Origin: Ceratodon purpureus
Lineage: Eukaryota; Streptophyta; Bryopsida; Pseudoditrichales; Ditrichaceae
Length of the DNA: 64,000 nucleotides
Assembly (NCBI GenBank): GCA_014871385.1
Contig: CM026425.1
Span: 17,192,637 to 17,256,636 of the forward strand
Reading direction: 5' to 3'
The notes under the pieces were generated by a model. The model saw only the letters and a list, made by a program, of their open reading frames with translations, did not search any database and had not been told where the DNA came from. Positions 279 through 11,530 of the stretch are shown piece by piece; the stretch's first letter is position 1; every line of letters begins with the position of its first letter. The position numbers were made by a program, and so were the translations under genes.

Positions 279-287
279 ACATCGAAG
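279..287. repeat. 9-bp target-site duplication, left copy
   Basis: acatcgaag directly precedes the first base of the left inverted repeat; the identical 9-mer follows the right repeat at 11522-11530. Confidence 0.92.
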
Positions 288-570
288 GGGTCTCTCTAAT
301 TTCCCCCTACGAGCGGTGCAGCCGCCCCTCGAGCGGGCAGGGGCAGCGCTCGTTGGGTTTCCCCCCCCCGACCCTCTCCCGGGCTCCACTCCCCGTCCCC
401 GCGCCCGATGTCCCCGACTCCCCGTGCCCGTGGTAGCCCCCGCGCCCGGGATTGGAATGCCCGCCCGGCGAGACCCTCATCCGGGCCCCGAGACTTCTCA
501 TCCCCCTCCCCTCGTCATCCACCTCATCGTCGCGTCGTCTCTCTCCTCCCCGCGCCGTCGTCTGTCTGCG
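288..570 (+). repeat. Left terminal inverted repeat of the MULE (283 bp)
   Basis: This repeat matches the reverse complement of 11239-11521 over 283 bases with one difference seen by eye (cgtcgcgtc here, cgttgcgtc in the other arm). The single C/T difference at a CpG could be methylcytosine deamination. Similarity stops abruptly after tctgtctgcg. Confidence 0.93.
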
Positions 571-819
571 ATCCATTATTCGCGCCGCCACCGTTGAGGG
601 CTGATGGCGGCACTGTTTCAATGCGAGCTTGGACAGGGGTCCGCCATCGCTGTATCTCGAGCTCCTCCATGCACAAATCGACAGAGGTAGGAGGGCGTTC
701 TAGACTTGCATGGACTTGGCATGACGACGGAGTATAATATTGAAGGTGGAAGGCTATTCGGACGTTTGAATCTGCAGATCGAATCATGGTTGATGGGTGA
801 GATTTAGGGTCATCATGAT

Positions 820-3800
820 ATGGGGGGGGCAGAGGTTCTCCCGGAAGAGGGTTCTCTGGACTCTTTGGGCGGTCCTGATGGAGAGTGTGTGCCTTCTGTT
901 CATGCACTTCACCGGTCCGAAGGTGGGAGGGAGGCGACTTGTACACATGGGCTTCCTGTTCCGTCTTCTTCCTCGCATCGATTACCCTGTGGCAGTGCTG
1001 TTGATTTGTCCGTTGTCGGGGAGGACTGGACTTGGGAGGAGGACACCATTGTGGCCGGACTCAGAAGACATGGGACAGAGGTATGTGCCCAAGAGAACGG
1101 GGCGGTTGCCCAGGAAGGCCTGCTTCTTCGACACACTTCAGGGGAGGTGCAGGCTCATGTCGGCACTTCCAGGCAGCAAGGATCTGATGTAAGGATGGAA
1201 TCCGATAAGATCGGAGACCTAGGGTTCATGGGCGACGGTTTTCATGGAACTGAGCAAGACAGCGGGGAATGTGAGCAGTTACGAGGGGAAGAAGTGGAGG
1301 CCCAGTGTTTCGAGATACCTGTACAAGATGATTGTGGAGAACAAAGCGACACATTGGTCGCGGAGGATGTTGGAGGCGGAGTGGCTACTGCAGAGCATTT
1401 GCTGTCCGAGACAGTACCGGATGAGAAGCCCAAAAGGGCGCCATGGAGAAAAATGGCTGAATCGGTGAAGGCGTCTGTCCAGAGGCCTCCACCAGGCCCT
1501 TTCAGTCGAGCAGATCTGCGATGGGAGGCGAAGTCAAACCAAGGCAGGGGGAGGCGTAGAGAAACTCAACGTGCCACCATTCCATGGGATCGTTTAGATG
1601 ATTTCCTCGAAGGGGAGATGTCGGGTCGGCAGCATCCATGCACATTTGTAGAAGAGTCCAGGAAGTGCATGAAGAAGGATGATCGGAAACAGACCCGCTC
1701 CGAATCTGCAGTTCAAGAAATCAGGTATGATAACTCCCATTCTTGCAATGTCTAAGTTTCTGACTCTGTTTTCATAGTTGCCTGTCCGGAATGAGTATTT
1801 TAGGGTTTGGATAGGTGCCGTTCTCACTCCAAATCTCCTTTCTTCTGCAGCTACTGGTGTCAGTACGGCCCTGAGGATTACAGTCGGCAATATAAGGTAG
1901 AGATCCAGAAGGCCTTCTCCCATGTCCTTGTGCAAAGGAAGAATTCAACAAACCAGAAAACCGCTGTAAAGAAGGCTCAGAAGCTGCTGGACAAGGCTGC
2001 GAAGGAAGCTGAAAAACAAGCCCGTCCAAAGAAAAAGACCAAGAAGCAACCTGTACCAGATCTGAATGAGGAGGCAGAGCAGGAGGACGAGGAGGAGATT
2101 TTACGAATTCAGGAGGCCCAGGAGCAACTGCTGCGTGCCCAAGCCTTGGTCGAGCAGGCCGCAAGGCCTCAAAGGAAAACCAGGGTCAGCAAAGTACAAG
2201 CCGGGATGTCCATTAAACGGGGATGTCAATGTAATTTCATTGCCAAGCAACTTCAGATAGATGAGTCTTTATGTACCATTCAGTTTCACTGTATGAGCCA
2301 CACTAATCGGGAGGGCAAGCCATGCCATGGGACAGAGTTTGGCGGACAGAGAGCAGGCCTCTCCGGGCATTTATCCGCAGCCACAAAAAAATGGATAGCC
2401 GACACACTTAGGTCAGGTAAATCCCCAGCCCAAGTTATGGCTGACCACAAGGCGGAGGTGATGAGGTGCACGTAGAATAACCTGCCAGCCACCAGGGACA
2501 CGTTTATAATGCCATCAGATGTTTATAATATTGCGAACAAGTTAGCGAAGGAGTTGTGGGAGAAGCACCCAAACGATGCAATGAGCGTTCGGTTATGGAC
2601 AGACGAGAATCCTGATTGCTGGTACCACTACCGGGAGTACGGTACTTTGGAGCTGAATGATGCTCCCCCACCTGAAGATGACCCATTCTGTCTTGCAATC
2701 CAAACAGAATGGCAGCTTCAGATGATGGTGAGGCATGGTCACAGGAGGGCGTTGTCCATGGACGCCACGTTCTCCACCAACGCCCCCAAGGTATTCTTCT
2801 CCCTCTCATTGCGATTTGTCCTAATTAATCTCTTCGTAGTTCCGATTTGCTGGAGTTCTGAATGTACATGAAGGCTGTCCGTGTCCTGATTCTGTTTCCT
2901 GCCTGTCCGGAAATCTATCCAGTACCCCCTGTATACGGTTATGGTCTTCGACGAGTGGGAGCAGGGGATTCCAGTAGCCTTCACTATTCAGGGGAAGTCT
3001 AGGGAGGTCGACATTGAGCCATGGCTGCGGAAATTGCGGGACCGCTGCCTGGCCGTGAAGCCTGACTGGAAACCAAACGCTTTCTTGGTGGATAATGACA
3101 ATGCAGAACTCAACGCAATCAGGTCAGCGTCTTTTTCATTTCATTTTTTTTTCAAGACAGGCAGTCTCTGCCGCCTGTCCAGGATGGAGCCCTGTCTTAT
3201 GTAATGCGTATCTTACTGTTTACCTTGCTACCTATTTTGTACAGGGATTTGATACTCTCTGTTTCTGAGAATGCAGGAAGGTGTGGCCAGAAGCACAACC
3301 TGTCCCGGGAGAGAAAAAGGACGACGTGGCCATCCTCCTCTGCCTTTGGCACACTAGGAAGGCGTGGCTTGAGAATGCTACCCAGAAAATAAAAGCGAAC
3401 TACCTCCGAACTGAGATTCTTGCTGCCTGTGCGGATCTCATGTACGGGAATGGTATTCTCCAGGGGGATTTGGCTGTGAAGGCTGCAAGGGAGCGGTTCA
3501 AGTTTTTGAAGACAAAGTACCCCCAAGCGAAGGCATTCTTTGTTTACTTTGAAGCCACATGGATTTCGAAGCTTGAGATGTGGGTGAAGGGGTTCCGCAA
3601 CATGCCTCACGCCAACCAGGATACAAACGCAGCTGTTGAGAGTTATCACGCAAACCTGAAGTCGATTTTGAGGTCTTCCAGAGCTAAATTTGACGGACGC
3701 AGGGTAGATTGGCTGGTCTACCACTTGCTCAAAGAAGTTTTGATACACTACTGGTATGCAGTGCAATGTAAGCTGTACGGATTCATCAAGAATGGTAAGG

Positions 3801-4459
3801 CAGAGGGCATAGTCGCCAATGCTGTCATACGGGCTGAGGAGATCCCAGATGAACATGTGAAGATCTGTCTACCCGAGGGCGTGGCTTATGTTGCTTCGCA
3901 GACGAATTTTCCAGTCATTTGGGTCATCACCAGTCCAGATTCGGACTGGGCTCACTGTAGTTGGCCTTTGGGAATGAGGGGCAATACCTGTAAACATGTC
4001 GTGAAAGTTTTCCGGATGATTAACCCCGATGCTCAGCCTGGTGACATTATCAGATATGCTGGAACGCTGCGGGGCACTATACGGGTTGGGGCGCGACCAG
4101 CTGGGATTACCTTGATTGCTGCAGATACTGCCTTCGACAGTGCTCAAGACAGGGGAAAACACGAAGCCACAGAAGACGATCCCGAGAAGGAACTGTGCAA
4201 CGGCAAGGCAGTCCTGGCTGAACTCGACACAATGTTGGTAGAGAACCGAGGACTTAGGAAAAATTTTATAGCAATGTTAAATGAGTGTAAAGGCAAGATG
4301 GCTTCCTTCAAGGTTAAGGCTGACGCAGGTTTGCTCCATCCTTTGTCCCAGCCTTCTTTCAAAGTGGCGGCCGGTCCCAAGAACCTTAGGAGGTTTAAGG
4401 CGTGTTCTGAAACAGGCACCAAGAAGCGAGGCGGCCAATCCCGGAAATGGACCTCTTAG
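820..4459 (+). CDS. MULE transposase (mudrA-type), four exons, one in-frame TAG
   Basis: Exons 820-1724, 1851-2790, 2923-3122 and 3277-4459 have GT-AG introns and keep one frame over 1076 codons. Residues 1-300 are acidic and unrecognised. A Cys/His cluster (RGCQCNF ... FHCMSH ... PCHGTEFGG) near residue 430-470 may bind DNA. The MULE catalytic core follows: SMDATF (Asp about 606), FLVDNDNAEL (Asp about 672) and NAAVESYH (Glu about 803), consistent with a DDE triad. The C-terminus has a SWIM-like motif, HCSWPLGMRGNTCKH, at about 908-922. Codon 510 (2473-2475) is TAG, although homologous-looking sequence continues in the same frame on both sides, so this copy is probably a single-nonsense allele. 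Start at 820 is chosen because it opens the longest frame, 250 bases inside the left TIR. It should cut and join DNA at the element ends in the nucleus. Confidence 0.85.
1725..1850 (+). other. Transposase intron 1 with CCTGTCCGGA motif
   Basis: Donor gtatga and acceptor ttctgcag. The intron carries cctgtccgga at 1781-1790. Intron 2 (2791-2922) carries the same 10-mer at 2902-2911, ending 11 bases before the acceptor. Intron 3 (3123-3276) has the variant cctgtccagg near 3174. Confidence 0.75.
2473..2475 (+). other. In-frame TAG inside the transposase exon 2
   Basis: The frame reads ...MRCT, stop, NNLPATRDTFIMPSDV... with no GT-AG intron of plausible size and phase able to remove the stop. A CAG-to-TAG transition is the simplest origin. 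Sequencing error or readthrough cannot be excluded from the sequence. Confidence 0.75.
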
Positions 4460-6327
4460 GCCTGTCCGGACAGCTTCATGTACATTATTGCATTCATTTT
4501 ATAAAGATTGAATTCAGACGTCTTCATATACCTGTCCGGATTATGTGACTCTTCCGCTGTCCATATACTCTTCTCTGTCCAGAAGACTACTTCTGCCTAT
4601 GGTATCCTTTGTCAGTTTAGCCTGAAATGTAAAACTTAATTGGTCCGTTAATGTTCTTAATCCCTACTGTATTCCATGTGTTTCTTTCCTTAAATTTCTT
4701 ATTGTTTGAGGCCGACCTGTCCGATCCTCCTTATTGTTTTATCCATGAACCTTGCTACTCTTGCACGGTCATGATGTTGCTTTTGAGCTCTTGATCGTTT
4801 TCTGTTATTTCATGTTTATGTTGTTTAGGCATTCCACTTTCCCCTACAATGTCTGTATTTCGGAATTCTTAATCATTATGTGTTCCGTATATGCATTTCT
4901 TTGTTTCTTATTATGTTCTCCACGTCTCCTTTTTCATCCAATTGGTGTGTCTATTTATCCATGCCTATTGGGTCGAATTTGTTTATTTCGGTTATTGCAA
5001 TTTTATTTTTTTTTGAGTTTCTGGTACCTTCTTATTTTTTTTATTTGTAGAACCCAAAGAGTACTTGTGTTTCTTTGTAAATACTTCTCTTCCCATATTA
5101 TGTTTCCATTGATTCATTACGTTTTTTTATGTTCTCTTTCGGCGTTCTTCTCCTTCTTTCTCCTTTCCTTTTTTAAATTTTATTTATAATTTTTTTTATA
5201 TATATATTTTTTATTTCATGTACTCTTACGAATTCATTACATTTTATCCATTTATCCATTTTTTTTTTTCATTTGACTGTCAATTCGTTCCCCTTTTTCT
5301 CTAGTTACTTTTATGATTGTTTTTATAACTTTAAAGACACGCTTCTTTGTTTTATTTCTTTTATATTTCTCCTGCAAACCTTCCCCTCATTTCATAACCT
5401 CCACATAATGTTGGTTCTATGTCCCTTCACATATGTAACACTCTATGTTTCCGATCATTTTTTTTTATTTTTTATTTTTTTCCTTTTCTTTTTCAAAAAT
5501 TATTTTTCTCCAATACTTAAACACCAGAGAACAAAGTCATCGAACACCCCAAACCCCTACTCCCTGAACGACACTGCCGCCCCAAGTCCTCACACAGCCC
5601 CTCAAACCGCCTAAGGGACACAGCCAACCCCTCCCACCGCTATCCCTCCTCCCACTTGAACACACTCTAAACCCAAAAAAAAGACAATGTCCGGTAGATG
5701 AAGGTGCACCCTGTCCGGGGTCTGCACTCATCAGTTTATAATTTTATTTTTTTTTCTTTAAGCACATAAAACTTGGACGCCCCTGCATCCTGTCCGGGGT
5801 GTGCAAGGGTCATTACTCGTTTTTTTTTTTTTATTTGTTTAACCACATAAAACTTGGACGCCCCTGCATCCTGTCCGGGGTGTGCAAGGGTCATTACTCG
5901 TTTCTTTTTTTTTTGTTTAACCACATAAAACTTGGGTGCGGGAGAGTAAAGGGAGAACTACAGCAGTGCAATATCTACACCCCAAGGCATACACGTCTGA
6001 GGGTTCGTCTCAAGACAGGTAAAAGAGCACGATTTCCAAACAGAAAGAGCAGACCGGAATAAACGTAAGACAGCTCAGAACGTGAATATACAGTGTTCGA
6101 TGCCAGAATTGTTCAAGACAGAAATACGTACTAAGAGATATCCCAAAAAATTAAAGTCAGAAGTCCTCAAAAAAATGTTTTCCTGCTCAAGACAGGGGCG
6201 GGCACCCTTGCTCATCTCCCCATATTATATCTTCTGGATTCATACCCACTGAGAACTCTATAAAAATATGTACTGAAATAGTTCATCTAATCGTAAACCG
6301 GTATATCTACATAGGCGACCTCACCCA
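4460..6327. other. Intergenic spacer between the convergent MULE genes
   Basis: The spacer holds the 3' ends of both genes. Between about 4600 and 5560 the + strand is strongly T-rich with little purine, producing spurious hydrophobic ORFs. CTGTCCGG octamers occur at 4462, 4532, 5711, 5790 and 5870. The first overlaps its own reverse complement (cctgtccggacag), giving a palindrome. No third gene was found. Confidence 0.6.
5763..5940 (+). repeat. Tandem repeat, about 80-bp unit, with CTGTCCGG in two units
   Basis: Units beginning cacataaaacttgg start at 5763, 5844 and 5922 (the third is partial). The first two contain cctgtccggggtgtgcaagg and a poly-T run. A diverged relative with ccctgtccggggtctgca lies just upstream at about 5709. 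Confidence 0.85.
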
Positions 6328-9300
6328 CTATTGGCTTGGTAAAACCACGACAGGGGTGCAAGACAGATACTGTCCGGCTATGTCGGCCACATCTTCCGCC
6401 CCTGCCCTGTCCGGACCAGAGCAGCCGCCCTCTTCAGTTCCACCTTCGACACAATCCCACCGGCTGCCTGTAGAGTGATCCGATGTGCTAGTTCCCAGGC
6501 TGTATTGATTCTCCGACCGAGCTTGAAAGACTCCCAGCTGGTCCAAACTGCATAACACTTGGGAGGCCCTGATCTGATCAAAGTCCACCAGGTCTTCGGT
6601 GACGTTCCAAACCTGAAGTTTCCCATGCAGATGATGGAGGCTGTCCGCCAAGAGCTTCTTCGCTGCCGTAAAAAGCCCAGCACCGGCTGCCGGCCATATC
6701 CCAGTGGCCTCCACAGCACCGAAAATATAACCTAGATCGATATTCTCCCGGTAGAGGAGAATATTTCTGAATGCATCGGCGACCCCTGCCTGGTCCACAT
6801 CGGGACGACTAACCCACATGTCACGCAGGACTCCTTCCTTCCCCAAGGCGATGGTATCAAGGCAGGCTCGTATGATTGTGTCACCGCGCCAAGCCTTGAA
6901 GCCGGTGCTCTGTCCGCCCCGGTCCTCAGCCGTGTCGAGCACTTCCCGAAACGTCTCGAAATCCTCGCCTTGCGTGTCCATGGTCGGGAAGAATACCTTG
7001 CCCACCCGGATGAGCTCTTCCATGGCAAGCAGGATCTCGGCAGCGTGGGAGTTGAGAGTCTGATGAGTGAGGCCCAATATAGGGCACAGCATCGGTGTCC
7101 GGGCCCCTATTTGACTCCTCGCAAATAACTTCATAGCACGCGCCATATGGGGGGGTTCATTGCGCTGCCCAATCCTCTTCCCCTCCAACTCCATCCACTT
7201 CATCAGTCCCTGGAATTCCTCTTCTGAGTGCTCGAAAGGCCGGTTAATGCAGCAGGGTGTTGGCTTGTTAATCGCTTCCATAAATAATGGCGACCAGCAC
7301 CACTCGATGTGTTCCTCCCTCATTCGCACCCCTTGGTCATATCGCGCCATCTCTTCCGCCACGAACGCATTGCGATCCCGGTCTACCTGCATGATCTTCC
7401 CTTCAAACTCCCGCTGTCTCTCCTGGAAGGTGAGCACCTCGTCGTGGTACAGGTAAAACTCTTGAATTTCTTTGTCAATCGCCTCTCCCGACTTCAGAGT
7501 GAATGCGGCCTTGCACCGATCCAGCCCAGCCGTCACTGCCACAGAGAAGGAACCCTACATCCCCACCACGACTTTCCTAATTAAAAAAGCATTTCAAGGC
7601 CCATCTAGACATACGTAACATCTCAAGATAAAAATCAGTGTCAACCCCAAACACCCCCGGAAACGAACTCTCCCTCTCATGCCGAACCACTTACCACCAG
7701 GTCCGCGTCGAACTGAACGGCGCCCCATGCCGCAGATACTAGACCCCCGAGCTTCCCCTGCTCTTGAAGAAACCGCAATGTCTCCAGAGGGCCCTGGAGC
7801 CCGGTCATCAACTCCGGTGCAATCAGCGTCCCGCAGCACTCCTGCAAGCAATACAGCCCCGGGGGGTTCGAGGGTGCCTTTGGCGCACTACGTGGGTCGA
7901 CCGAAGGGAACAACTCCACCGCCTTCGCCTCAGCCATTGCCTTCACGCGTGCCCTCACCCCTGCCGGTGTTCGCCTTCGTGGCGTCTCCTTCTCCTGCCG
8001 AACCCCGCTGCCTAAACGAACCCCGCCGTCGTCTTCAACCTCAACGTCTGCAGTACCCTGCGCCCCCTGAAATTCATCATGAAACCCGTCTTCTCCAGGA
8101 CCATGACCCTCGAATCTGTCCCTCTTCCTCTTCACCCCGGTGTCCTCTCTCACCCCCTGTCCCGCGCCATCAGCCCCCACCCCCCTACCCATCCTCCCCC
8201 CGGTAGCCCCGCGAGTCCGCTGCGCAATTCTACCAAGTGGCGTCGTCTCCCCACCGTCTCGCATTCCTCGACCAGTTGGCGTTTTGGTCGCCCCTCCGCT
8301 CTTACCCCAACCCCCAGATGGAGTACCCTTTTTCCCCTTCCCCCCCCGGCTACACCCTGCTCCACTGTCCGACGATGTGTCGGAGATGACTTGCTTTTTT
8401 TTTTTTCTGCCTGAAGGCGAAGCCCCTTTCCCCGAGCCGCTACCAATCTCTGTGACCCTACGCGGTGGAGTCTTCTTCGTTGGTGACTGTGTAGCCGGTG
8501 TCCCCCTCCGCTCACGATCCGCCTGTAGTCCGGCCAGGACCTCGGCGACACTCGGCCCATCTCCGAGCAGTCGTCTCTTCACTTCGGACAGCTCGTCCCT
8601 TCCCGTGGCCCGTGAACTCTGACCTCTTCCATCCTGCTCTCCACCGGCGACCCCCTGTTCCCCGTCGCCATCGCCTTCCCCTCCGCCCACTTGTTCCCCG
8701 TCGCTCCTTTCGGCGCTGCCCGGAGCCCGCCCATCCGGAGTGCTCAAATCCAGCGGGGGTAGTTCCCCGGCTGTACTATTCCTCTGCCGAGACCCGCCTG
8801 CCTGTGTTTCGCCGGCATCCCCTTCCGCCCCCGAATCCTCCTTGTCGCTGCGCCGTATCTTCTTCTTTTTACCACCGTCTTTCTTCACCTCCGGCCTTTT
8901 CCCTAGCATCTGCCAAGGCAGGGCCAGATTATACTTGGCGAAGACAGCTCGCGCCACTTTATTGCCTTCAATCCCATGGGCTGGGTAGATTTTTAGGGGC
9001 CCGTTGTCAATGTACTCGTAGCAGGGACACGCTCCGGACTTACGATGCCATCCGAGTGTGGCTTTGTCCACCATCTCAGCGTCGCAGTATTTGCAAATGA
9101 ACGGTATCTTCGTCCTAGACTTCCCCTTCTCCTGATTCGGCTCTTCATCCTTTCGATACAGTAAATTCACCTCCACCATGAGCCAATCGTGCTCGCTCAT
9201 GGTGAAGGCGTCTCGGCATGCCTCATATCCTGCCGCGACACTTGTGCAAACTATCACCTCTTCCGGCCCATATTTTCCCTCCACCAGAAGCTGCAACACA

Positions 9301-10796
9301 CCCCCCCACACACACCCGAACCCCCCCCCCCCCCCCCCCCCCCCCCAAGTGCAAACACAGTCAGTATGCTTCAGATCCTCAACCCGAATTGAGCACCACG
9401 TCCGAACCGGTAATTACAGGGAGGAGAAGATGGTAGTCCACTAACCCCGTCTACCATGCCCGGTTCCTGCGTTGCAATTCTCCTCTGCCATTCTTTGGAC
9501 AGATCGGAGACGTGCAGAATTGTCGCCCGATGCCACAATACATCGCAGGCGTTGTCCTTGGACAGCCCGGAGAGGTCTGGTGTTTCAAGATTGTCAATCT
9601 GCAGGACAAGGTAAGGGAGGGAAAACGTAAGATGGAAACATGGTACGAGAGAGAATGAACTGAATGAGAGACGCTAGAAACGGAGCCTGTCCGGAGAGGT
9701 AGAGGGGATCAGAGAATTGAGATCTTGGCTTCAAAAAACTAAAAGAAATTAAAAAAAGTCGGAAGTCCTCAAGGAATGGTGAAGGAGGGGAAGGCCTAAT
9801 GGCGGATTCGGACAGGGCCTCCCGTGGGGGAAAAAAAAAAAAAAAAAAAACAAAAAAAAACCAATAGAAAAGGAAAAAAATTAAAAATAACATGAAAAAA
9901 TTGAAAACAAGATGGGAAAACGGAAAATGAAAGAGAGAGGGAGATTAATGGAAAAAGTGACGAAAATGAAGAGAGAGAAAGAAATAAAAAAATTAAAAAA
10001 TCAGCAAGCACAAGGTGAAACTGCAAAGAGGATGAGACTTTCATAAAACAAGGTAGGCGAAAGGAGGTTGGGGAAATATGAAAGAGAAGATCAACAAACA
10101 CAGACATTCAAATTCAGTAAGGAAAAATCAGGACAGACTCGAAGGAGAGGGAGTTAGCGAGATCATGGGAAATGCAGAAATTTAATGTAAATCAACCTGG
10201 AAGAACAATTTCAACGGCAAGACGAAGATTAGATGAAAAAAAAATAAAAAAAAAATCCAGAGAACCGCCCCGGACAGGACAGGACAGCGTCTCCGGACAG
10301 GGAGAAATGCGAGGTTCCCGAAGGGGACGGACATTACACGCTTTGGACATAGCCATCGAGAGGCACTTCTGAAGACTCATAGGGAAACAGATCAGTACGA
10401 GGGATGGGGACAAGAGCTCAGTGGGGAGGGAGATAAAAAAAAGTCAAACAATTAAAAAATAAACTTCTTCCGTTACTGCACAAAACGCTAAACATTTGGA
10501 CAGGTCGAAACTGACCTACTTGTCGACAATGTCTGAAGGAAGCGCAGCAACGACAGAGCCTAGACAGGGAGAGATAGATAGAACTGCATTACACCTGTCC
10601 GGAAATAGGAAAACTTCCGTTAAGGACAGAGAACACATGAGTGACATAGACCTAAAACGAAACAAAGAAGGACGACGACAGCAGGAGAAACGGACAGGAG
10701 GGAATATGAAGAAGAGATTAAAAAAAAAAAAAAAAACCGAAGACTATGCAGAAGGGCCGGGAATGAGGTACTCACCAAGTCCCGTATGTTCTTCAT
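6328..10796 (-). CDS. Second MULE gene, unknown function, zinc-finger-like motif
   Basis: Model on the minus strand: exons 10796-10776 (MKNIRDL), 9598-9446, 9290-7695 and 7554-6328. They join in one frame to about 998 residues with GT-AG introns; the tiny first exon is the least certain. A Cys2-His-Cys cluster (CKYCDAEM ... HRKSGACPC) lies at about residues 124-148. It is followed by about 300 residues of Gly/Ser/Lys/Arg-rich low-complexity sequence with basic runs such as GRKKKKQ, suggesting nuclear localisation, and then a folded-looking C-terminal 400 residues. No DDE motif is seen. The gene converges on the transposase, starts inside the right TIR and occupies the mudrB position, but I see no resemblance that lets me name it. 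It could bind element DNA, assist integration or counter silencing; these are inferences. Its 5' region has AAACCCTA telo-box-like motifs (about 11078 and 11116). Confidence 0.65.
9321..9346 (+). repeat. 26-base poly-C tract
   Basis: Uninterrupted C run on the + strand in intron 2 of the second MULE gene (poly-G in its sense strand), preceded by a CA-rich stretch. Potential G-quadruplex former in the pre-mRNA. Confidence 0.9.
9599..10775 (-). other. Long strand-biased intron 1 of the second MULE gene
   Basis: About 1.2 kb that is purine-rich on the + strand, so pyrimidine-rich in the sense of the gene. CTGTCCGG octamers lie at 9687, 10270, 10293 and 10595 in both orientations, with near matches at 9808, 10498 and 10691. 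The intron call depends on the proposed 21-nt first exon. Confidence 0.45.
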
Positions 10797-11238
10797 GACC
10801 GTTCCCCACCGAAGCCGTGACGTCCTCCTCCGCTGAGCTCCACCTCGCTACTCCCCCTCTTCTGAGGTCCACCTCGCTGCTCCTCCCCCACTGAGATTGG
10901 CAGCTTGAAGGACCTAAACCTAAACCACTCCACCAAAGGAGTCCAACCCGAACCCTGTATCTACCGACAGCGACTCGAAAACCTAGGACGGATCTCCATG
11001 TACCCGCACCGCATATTCACCAACATCCCAACCCAGCAATCCCCGAGCTCCAAAGGGGCCACAACCTAAAAACCCTAAACCGCTACGGCATTTTCTCTGC
11101 TGTTTTCTCCGACCTAAACCCTAAACAAGCTCTCCTCTAGCTGGTTACCACCATCGCTGATTGTACACTACCCTAACCACAATGCAAACAAGCTGTCCGG
11201 AACCATAACAACGGACACAGCAAAACTCCAAGACACGG

Positions 11239-11521
11239 CGCAGACAGACGACGGCGCGGGGAGGAGAGAGACGACGCAACGATGAGGTGGATGACGAGGG
11301 GAGGGGGATGAGAAGTCTCGGGGCCCGGATGAGGGTCTCGCCGGGCGGGCATTCCAATCCCGGGCGCGGGGGCTACCACGGGCACGGGGAGTCGGGGACA
11401 TCGGGCGCGGGGACGGGGAGTGGAGCCCGGGAGAGGGTCGGGGGGGGGAAACCCAACGAGCGCTGCCCCTGCCCGCTCGAGGGGCGGCTGCACCGCTCGT
11501 AGGGGGAAATTAGAGAGACCC
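11239..11521 (-). repeat. Right terminal inverted repeat of the MULE (283 bp)
   Basis: Inverted copy of 288-570, ending gggggaaattagagagaccc at 11521 directly before the TSD. A CTGTCCGG octamer lies 39 bases inside it, at 11193-11200. Confidence 0.93.
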
Positions 11522-11530
11522 ACATCGAAG
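11522..11530. repeat. 9-bp target-site duplication, right copy
   Basis: acatcgaag directly follows the last base of the right inverted repeat and matches 279-287 exactly. Confidence 0.92.

What the first reader, a model, noticed from the sequence alone, without database searches (positions are those of the whole stretch)
1782..11200. CTGTCCGG octamer scattered at least 14 times through the element and not noticed elsewhere
Exact octamers lie at 1782, 2903, 4462 (palindromic with 4466), 4532, 5711, 5790, 5870, 6370, 6407, 9687, 10270, 10293, 10595 and 11193, mostly as CCTGTCCGGA, in introns, the spacer and flanks. About 0.3 would be expected by chance in 11 kb on both strands with equal base use. 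The pattern recalls subterminal TNPA sites of En/Spm and, more closely, the short motifs bound in non-coding regions of VANDAL MULEs by the VANC anti-silencing proteins. It may be the recognition code of an element-encoded DNA-binding protein, possibly the second gene product.
Basis: partly seen in the sequence, partly recalled or inferred. Interest (0 to 1): 0.88.

Follow-up and report, generated by a model that had tools for sequence, protein, structure and literature searches.

The report
Moss transposon with its own address tag
A two-gene jumping gene, apparently from a moss, carries the short DNA tag CTGTCCGG 15 times along its length, relatives too diverged to align elsewhere still carry it, and a second branch of the family carries a changed tag, which suggests a self-encoded protein that recognises its own element.

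Summary
The octamer is real: 15 copies in 64 kb, all inside an 11,234-bp Mutator-like element (288-11521), none in its terminal repeats; shuffles of the interior give 0.31. It is a family property. Six loci picked as decamer clusters are all relatives, with 85 octamers inside and 0 in 40.6 kb outside, although little of their non-coding DNA aligns. Of 15 spacers chosen by transposase match, 13 have at least 5 CTGTCC (about 1 expected); L037 and L032 do not. A second branch keeps CTGTCC but follows it with T (G48/T8 against G2/T51, p = 7.6e-20); the split coincides with a 99/96-supported split of protein B, which carries an invariant C2HC finger. Best reading: the motif is the binding site of an element-encoded protein, most likely B, acting along the whole element as VANC does in VANDALs, though B is unrelated to VANC by domain search. 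Binding and any effect on methylation are not shown; the transposase or a host factor remain possible binders. By size the assembly resembles the moss Ceratodon purpureus.

The parts
279..287 (.). left target-site duplication ACATCGAAG
11522..11530 (.). right target-site duplication ACATCGAAG
288..570 (+). left terminal inverted repeat, 283 bp, 100% identical to the right one; no CTGTCC
11239..11521 (-). right terminal inverted repeat
820..1724 (+). gene A (MULE transposase) exon 1
   Evidence: model by splice-site reading
1851..2790 (+). gene A exon 2; holds one in-frame TAG at 2473-2475
2923..3122 (+). gene A exon 3
3277..4459 (+). gene A exon 4; 106 matches in the genome (capped scoring)
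   Evidence: (Pfam MULE E 4.3e-11 for the C-terminal 655 residues of A)
10776..10796 (-). gene B exon 1 (model)
9446..9598 (-). gene B exon 2
7695..9290 (-). gene B exon 3; its first 147 codons hold the C2HC finger C-X2-C-X12-H-X5-C
6328..7554 (-). gene B exon 4
1782..1789 (+). CTGTCCGG, gene A intron 1
2903..2910 (+). CTGTCCGG, gene A intron 2
4462..4469 (+). CTGTCCGG, just after gene A stop; overlaps the next as palindrome CTGTCCGGACAG
4466..4473 (-). CTGTCCGG, overlapping reverse copy
4532..4539 (+). CTGTCCGG, spacer between the convergent genes
5711..5718 (+). CTGTCCGG, spacer, first of three related 79-81-bp units
5790..5797 (+). CTGTCCGG, spacer tandem unit
5871..5878 (+). CTGTCCGG, spacer tandem unit
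5742..5935 (.). 81-bp tandem array (2.4 copies) carrying the motif
6370..6377 (+). CTGTCCGG in gene B exon 4
6407..6414 (+). CTGTCCGG in gene B exon 4
9687..9694 (+). CTGTCCGG, gene B intron 1
10270..10277 (-). CTGTCCGG, gene B intron 1
10293..10300 (-). CTGTCCGG, gene B intron 1
10595..10602 (+). CTGTCCGG, gene B intron 1
11193..11200 (+). CTGTCCGG between gene B exon 1 and the right terminal repeat

Best explanation
The octamer and its weaker CTGTCC forms are binding sites, kept by selection along the whole element, for a protein that the element itself encodes. The most likely binder is the second gene product B, a 998-residue protein whose conserved N-terminal part carries a C2HC zinc finger. 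Many scattered sites let B mark this subfamily's DNA as self in cis; the most likely output, inferred by likeness to VANC/VANDAL, is that bound B keeps the element from being silenced, so that the transposase is made and transposition stays confined to its own kind. Shown: the sites, their family specificity, their retention while other non-coding DNA diverged, the change of the base after CTGTCC between two branches, and the agreement of that change with the B tree. Inferred: that B is the binder, and that the effect is anti-silencing.
For: 15 octamers against 0.31 expected. A weight matrix trained on one half of the element finds 4.1 and 5.1 hits per kb in the other half against 0.25 per kb in the flank. 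Contexts of sites are unrelated apart from one tandem array. Enriched in B coding DNA beyond codon use: CTGTCC 10 against 2.5, 0 of 1000 shuffles. Six loci picked as dense decamer clusters are all relatives with terminal repeats, A and B: 85 octamers inside 79.4 kb, 0 in 40.6 kb outside, while blastn finds only short scraps of common non-coding DNA. Of 15 spacers chosen by transposase match, 13 have 5 or more CTGTCC; three fetched last as a replication, with nothing known of their sites (L067-L069), hold 5, 4 and 7 octamers in 2.5 kb each. 31 of the 100 listed decamer sites lie within 12 kb of an A or B match, 1.07 expected. Next base after CTGTCC: 8 GG-side spacers G48 A5 T8 C3; 7 T-side spacers T51 A10 G2 C2, p = 7.6e-20. 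The B tree splits into the same two groups, support 99/96. B's N-terminal part is under strong constraint (pN 0.06-0.30 against pS 0.56-0.93, the near-identical L057 left out), its finger Cys and His are the same in 20 of 20 rows, and helix position +3 is Thr in 12 of 12 GG rows, Asn 5 or His 2 in T rows. 20 of 20 transposase copies listed on C1-C3 have B downstream.
Against: No binding, expression or methylation data. One copy on the GG side (L037, 79%) has only 2 CTGTCC in its spacer and L038 only 5; L032 has 3, and pieces of other 72-74% copies 2-5 in 2-2.5 kb. Ten deeper B-like loci (44-51%) read for 2 kb upstream: nine have 0-3 CTGTCC, one has 17 in a tandem array. A non-relative control region (h, retroelement-like) has 32 CTGTCC in 20 kb, though only 2 octamers, so CTGTCC alone is not unique to the family. 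Position +3 is one of 11 discriminating columns of 131, and both Asn and His occur with the T motif, so it is no simple code. A single finger is little for a 9-10-bp site, and Pfam does not accept it. The branch split is one event, so A and B cannot be told apart by the tree. The Fisher value treats sites as independent; shared ancestry and tandem arrays inflate it. The structure models were useless (pLDDT 37 and 38).
Confidence: 0.55

Rival explanations
1. The transposase A itself binds the sites, as an internal recruiting, regulatory or anti-silencing signal (MURA of maize MuDR is reported to lower methylation of terminal repeats, PMC10398659 passages).
For: Every copy read here that has the motif was found with A as well (copies were largely picked by A); A has a Cys/His-rich stretch before its catalytic domain (by eye, translation); and its branches would show the same split as B because both ride on one element.
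Against: The terminal repeats, where a MULE transposase is expected to bind (recalled), hold no CTGTCC in the window and no octamer in six relatives (one relative has 2 CTGTCC there). A is the more conserved protein: 61-100% in exon 4 against 43-100% for the N-terminal part of B, and 71-88% against 45-49% in element X, while the motif switched.
Confidence: 0.2
2. A host factor (for example a transcription factor with a TGTC core, such as an auxin response factor; recalled) is recruited by the sites to drive element expression.
For: TGTC is the core of auxin response elements (recalled); TEs often carry host factor sites (recalled).
Against: The sites are spread over introns, the 3' spacer and coding DNA rather than near starts. 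The specificity differs between subfamilies of one genome, where the host factors are the same. Genome background is low: 574 decamers in 362 Mb against 254 for the reversed control.
Confidence: 0.12
3. No binding site: the motif spreads by mutation, duplication or gene conversion, or is a composition effect.
For: One tandem array with 79-81-bp spacing multiplies three of the 15 sites; the T-type copy X has a 9-bp tandem run.
Against: Flanks of the sites are unrelated, mean identity 0.27. Sites persist where synonymous sites of B are near saturation and non-coding DNA hardly aligns. Dinucleotide, codon and column-permuted controls fall far below the count, although in A's coding DNA the excess is slight (28 of 1000 shuffles as high).
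Confidence: 0.05
4. The sites work like En/Spm subterminal TNPA sites: cis-determinants of excision that hold the ends together.
For: Multiple short sites and an element-encoded second protein, as in CACTA elements (PMC2613891 passages); the last octamer (11193-11200) lies within 40 bp of the inner edge of the right terminal repeat.
Against: Most sites are not subterminal: the first octamer lies 1.2 kb inside the left terminal repeat, and sites run through both genes. Terminal repeats and the 9-bp duplication are MULE, not CACTA.
Confidence: 0.08

Closest known systems
VANC / VANDAL anti-silencing systems of Arabidopsis (VANC21, VANC6; PMC5735166 and PMC10398659, passages read)
   Same: MULE with transposase plus an accessory protein; short motif repeated through introns, intergenic and other non-coding parts, partly as tandem repeats; motif differs between related families (YAGTATTAY against AGTTGTCC / AGTTGTAC) as here CTGTCCGG against CTGTCCT; rapid divergence of non-coding DNA.
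   Different: B has no DUF1985 or DUF287 match and carries a C2HC finger; terminal repeats are long and identical rather than degenerate; sites also lie in coding DNA; host is probably a moss; no demethylation shown.
MuDR of maize (mudrA, mudrB)
   Same: TIR-MULE with a transposase and a second gene (PMC6446971 passage); 9-bp duplication and convergent genes (recalled).
   Different: MURA acts on the terminal repeats (PMC10398659 passage); here the sites are internal and absent from the terminal repeats. B was not compared with MURB directly; no Pfam family matched it above cut-off.
En/Spm and Tgm CACTA elements with TNPA-like binders (PMC2613891 passages)
   Same: Element-encoded DNA binder with many short sites; TnpA is linked to demethylation (PMC10398659 passage).
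   Different: Sites there are subterminal (within 159 and 732 bp of the ends in Tgmt*); CACTA ends and 3-bp duplications; another superfamily.
Spectre MULEs of invertebrates (PMC6446971 passage)
   Same: Second ORF with a C2H2 zinc finger beside the transposase, perfect 74-bp TIRs, 8-bp duplication.
   Different: Invertebrate hosts; no motif array described in the passages read.
AT1G60560-like SWIM proteins of land plants (name from one hit)
   Same: Nearest protein relatives of A, 27-33% identity over about 75% of the queried part (120 of 148 hits listed).
   Different: About 700 residues, apparently host genes (by their names and spread); presence of a partner B not tested. One search for a transposase link in print found 0 papers.

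Membership tests
MULE (Mutator superfamily) | MULE transposase domain | tested here: met
   PF10551 E 4.3e-11, 43.6 bits against cut-off 27.6 (one in-frame stop given as X)
MULE (Mutator superfamily) | 8-11-bp target duplication and long terminal inverted repeats | tested here: met
   9 bp, 283 bp 100%; 9-bp duplications in 5 of 6 relatives by eye, none seen in the sixth
VANDAL | lost or degenerate terminal inverted repeats | tested here: not met
   283-bp perfect repeats
VANC protein | DUF1985 / DUF287 domains | tested here: not met
   no such Pfam match in B or P0121
VANC-like mechanism | short motif repeated through non-coding parts of the element | tested here: met
   but coding DNA is not spared in relatives
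VANC-like mechanism | motif differs between related families together with the accessory protein | tested here: met
   one switch only
VANC-like mechanism | protein binds the motif | not testable with these tools
   needs EMSA, DAP-seq or ChIP-seq
[quoted passage not shown]
   needs bisulfite data
CACTA (En/Spm) | CACTA ends, 3-bp duplication, subterminal repeats | tested here: not met
   ends GGGTCTCTCT, 9-bp duplication, sites spread over 9.4 kb
C2H2-type zinc finger | Pfam zf-C2H2 above its cut-off | tested here: not met
   only P0121 matches, E 0.044, 14.7 bits against 25.2; B itself has no match
C2H2-type zinc finger | C-X2-C-X12-H-X5-C/H kept across relatives | tested here: met
   alignment of 20 rows; among 7 sub-threshold PDB hits three are SNAI1, PRDM9 and CTCF fingers at this stretch, E 0.3-0.73, but the best, E 0.12, is not a finger

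The most novel reading that the evidence does not exclude
A second, independently evolved sequence-specific anti-silencing system: long-TIR Mutator elements of a moss encode a C2HC zinc-finger protein, unrelated to VANC, that recognises CTGTCCGG sites spread along its own subfamily, and one natural change of that protein moved the recognised site to CTGTCCT, giving two non-cross-reacting self codes in one genome.
Probability: 0.4. Interest if true: 0.88.

Novelty: new variant of a known kind. Interest (0 to 1): 0.8.

Why it matters
VANC is described from Arabidopsis VANDALs, and which part of VANC sets the target, and how the silent mark is removed, are named as open in PMC5735166 (passages). 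Here is a family with about 100 transposase matches in one genome, two sharply different site types that differ in one half of the motif, and a candidate binder small enough (147 conserved residues, one recognisable finger, 11 branch-fixed columns) to swap and test. If B is anti-silencing, the trick arose more than once with unrelated proteins, which would make self-addressed protection a wider strategy of Mutator elements.

Tried and rejected
Considered and dropped: En/Spm-like subterminal sites (positions do not fit); terminal-repeat recognition (no site there); composition or codon effects; a host-wide motif (0 octamers in 52.8 kb of window flank; 574 decamers in the genome against 254 for the reversed control).

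Led nowhere: protein search for residues 560-960 of B (none among 7995 candidates scored); structure prediction of B exon 4 and of the B N-terminal part (pLDDT 36.7 and 38.1), so no fold search was run; solved-structure searches (only sub-threshold); scans of viral and prokaryotic contigs (nothing related). A codon-compatibility test of P0121 for hidden octamers was weak (6 against 2.66, 108 of 2000 shuffles as high). Methylation decay of the CpG in the motif could not be judged because the copy looks young (identical terminal repeats). and the first gene models had exon borders off by one base; the octamer and CTGTCC counts did not change when corrected. One search timed out and crashed half way; both were replaced. 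The genome search for the terminal repeat did not complete, nor one for CTGTCCTA.

Circularity: loci a-f were picked as decamer clusters, so their counts show only that such clusters are this family. The 12 copies were picked from the transposase list over bands of identity; for the five on C1 and C2 I had already seen that they have no or one decamer nearby, so this choice leaned against the octamer; nothing was known of a T-type motif then. The 15 B-upstream pieces were picked by identity, some of them known to belong to copies without nearby decamers. L028 and L053 are two pieces of one copy. L067-L069 lie on contigs for which no site had been listed. X and Y were extended because their spacers had already shown TGTCCT. 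The lists are capped.
Full report
Setting. The window is G000:C5:17192637-17256636 of an assembly of 362,488,568 bases in 151 contigs; C6 is 110.5 Mb. A 360-Mb genome with sex chromosomes over 100 Mb, about 30% of the total, is described for the moss Ceratodon purpureus (PMC8000587, passages). The match is by size only; the name is my inference. Flanking open frames match ribosomal L12, UFC1, JmjC, UDP-glycosyltransferase and fasciclin domains (5 of 8 frames searched).

The element. Identical 283-bp terminal repeats at 288-570 and 11239-11521 with a 9-bp duplication ACATCGAAG bound an 11,234-bp element with two convergent genes. Gene A (+ strand, four exons by splice-site reading) has a MULE transposase domain, E 4.3e-11, read with one in-frame TAG at 2473-2475 as X; its relatives in the protein search are 27-33% identical plant proteins, many named SWIM, one 'like AT1G60560' (148 hits, 120 listed). 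Gene B (- strand, four exons, 998 residues) has no Pfam match above cut-off, no relative for residues 560-960 and one for its first 205 residues, P0121, 56% identical, unnamed.

The motif. CTGTCCGG occurs 15 times in the window, all in the element, against 0.31 in shuffles of its interior (max 3 of 500). 13 lie in 4,443 non-coding bases and 2 in 6,225 coding bases (p = 7.6e-4). The core CTGTCC occurs 43 times inside; the refined matrix reads C/G-C-T-G-T-C-C-G-G-A/G, with about 61 sites by expectation-maximisation. Trained on the left half, a matrix finds 4.1 sites per kb in the right half against 0.25 in the flank, and the reverse gives 5.1; column-permuted matrices reach at most 9 hits where the true ones have 22 and 27. 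Site flanks are unrelated except for one tandem array. Within B's coding DNA CTGTCC is in excess of codon-preserving shuffles (10 against 2.5, none of 1000 as high); within A's it is weaker (7 against 2.98, 28 of 1000).

Other copies. CCTGTCCGGA occurs 574 times in the genome, its reversed control 254 times. Of the 100 places listed (C1, C2 and part of C3) 31 lie within 12 kb of a family match, 1.07 expected. Nine loci of 20 kb were fetched as groups of decamers: six dense clusters (a-f) are all relatives with terminal repeats, A and B; three sparse ones (g-i) gave no match to the element or its proteins and look, by eye, like duplicated and retroelement DNA. The six hold 85 octamers in 79.4 kb of element and none in 40.6 kb around; CTGTCC 244 inside and 11 outside. 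Their non-coding DNA shares only short scraps with the window copy. The three controls hold 2, 2 and 4 octamers and 13, 32 and 12 CTGTCC in 20 kb each, so CTGTCC alone can be common elsewhere, the octamer much less so. In the six, 34 of 85 octamers are in stretches matching A or B, which make 35.2 of 79.4 kb, so the non-coding preference of the window copy is not general.

Copies chosen by transposase. Exon 4 has 106 matches, 61-100% identical. Spacers of 2.5 kb were fetched for 12 of them over bands of identity and later for three more as a replication. CTGTCC counts: L034 13, L035 13, L036 7, L037 2, L038 5, L028 5, L030 5, L032 3, L027 15, L029 7, L031 23, L033 7, L067 7, L068 9, L069 8, against about 0.6-1.4 by base composition where computed. 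Octamers: 10, 9, 4, 1, 1, then 0 in the seven copies from L028 to L033, and 5, 4, 7 in the last three. L037 and L032 are plain exceptions. Five of the 12 (on C1 and C2) were already known to have no or one decamer nearby; nothing was known of the three replicates.

A second site type. The seven copies without the octamer keep CTGTCC but follow it with T: T51 A10 G2 C2, against G48 A5 T8 C3 in the other eight (p = 7.6e-20, sites treated as independent). Element X (C1 about 10.58 Mb, terminal repeats found, 9.0 kb) has 49 CTGTCC, 31 followed by T and 2 by G. Eight pieces of seven 72-76% copies, five of them upstream of B, have 34 CTGTCC, 26 followed by T and none by GG; several of these pieces hold hardly more CTGTCC than expected.

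Protein B. A tree of 20 B N-terminal pieces splits, support 99/96, into GG-type and T-type copies; P0121 falls on the GG side. The labels of a-f rest on motif-picked loci, those of the others on the window itself and the spacers; two rows on the GG side (L060, L061) have spacers with few sites. Between the window and other copies pN is 0.06-0.30 and pS 0.56-0.93, the nearly identical L057 left out: amino acids are constrained and silent sites near saturation, so scattered octamers are unlikely to have persisted by descent alone. All 20 rows keep C-X2-C, H and the following C of a C2HC finger. Of 131 columns 11 share no residue between the branches, among them finger helix position +3 (numbering recalled from classical fingers): Thr in 12 of 12, against Asn 5 and His 2. 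This is suggestive, not proof, because the other ten columns change too and two residues go with one site type. B has at least 150 matches in the genome, 43-100% (capped), and 20 of 20 transposase copies listed on C1-C3 have one downstream, 19 within 10 kb, on the opposite strand by reading. Ten deeper B-like loci (44-51%) were read for 2 kb upstream: nine show 0-3 CTGTCC, one 17 in a tandem array; three have one octamer. Whether they belong to elements was not tested.

Interpretation. The pattern (many scattered short sites, absent from the ends, kept in diverged copies, differing by subfamily, with a fast-changing accessory protein) is that of VANC targets: VANC21 binds YAGTATTAY, VANC6 targets carry AGTTGTCC or AGTTGTAC, in non-coding parts and often in tandem repeats, and VANCs carry DUF1985 and DUF287 (PMC5735166, passages). 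B lacks those domains and the element has long perfect ends, so it is not a VANDAL; it may work like one. PMC10398659 (passages) names TnpA of Spm and MURA of MuDR as further proteins that lower methylation of their elements, so the output is plausible but unproven. Word searches for a moss or zinc-finger MULE counterpart in print showed none among the 20, 10 and 8 papers listed (of 508, 120 and 52) and found 0 papers in the last; only open-licence PMC papers were searched.

Noticed in passing
window 820-4459 (gene A): The transposase's best protein relatives are SWIM proteins of the AT1G60560 type from many seed plants (148 hits, 27-33% in the 120 listed); this element may be a living relative of the transposon from which that host family came.
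   Followed up: partly
window 2473-2475: Gene A of this copy has one in-frame TAG; exon 4 is free of stops in many other copies (other exons not checked).
   Followed up: partly
G000 contig C6 (110.5 Mb): About half of the 106 transposase matches (55 by hand count) lie on C6, 30% of the assembly, and many of those have stops; C6 may be a sex chromosome where copies pile up and decay.
   Followed up: no
window 3152-3161, 4144-4153, 6010-6019, 6187-6196 (all - strand): A second word, CCTGTCTTGA, occurs four times exactly in the element interior and nowhere else in the window; it may be a variant site.
   Followed up: no
window 9321-9346: 26-base run of C inside gene B intron 2, about 30 bases before the acceptor on the other strand; could affect splicing or be an assembly artefact.
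   Followed up: no
L031/L039/L040 (C1:10570254-10585253): T-type element with a run of 9-bp CTGTCCTCT-like repeats in its spacer: sites multiplying by short tandem duplication, as described for VANC targets.
   Followed up: partly
L042-L045 and L047-L052 (pieces upstream of deep B matches): B-like genes at 44-51% identity mostly without the motif: either another element family with another code or host-retained copies.
   Followed up: no
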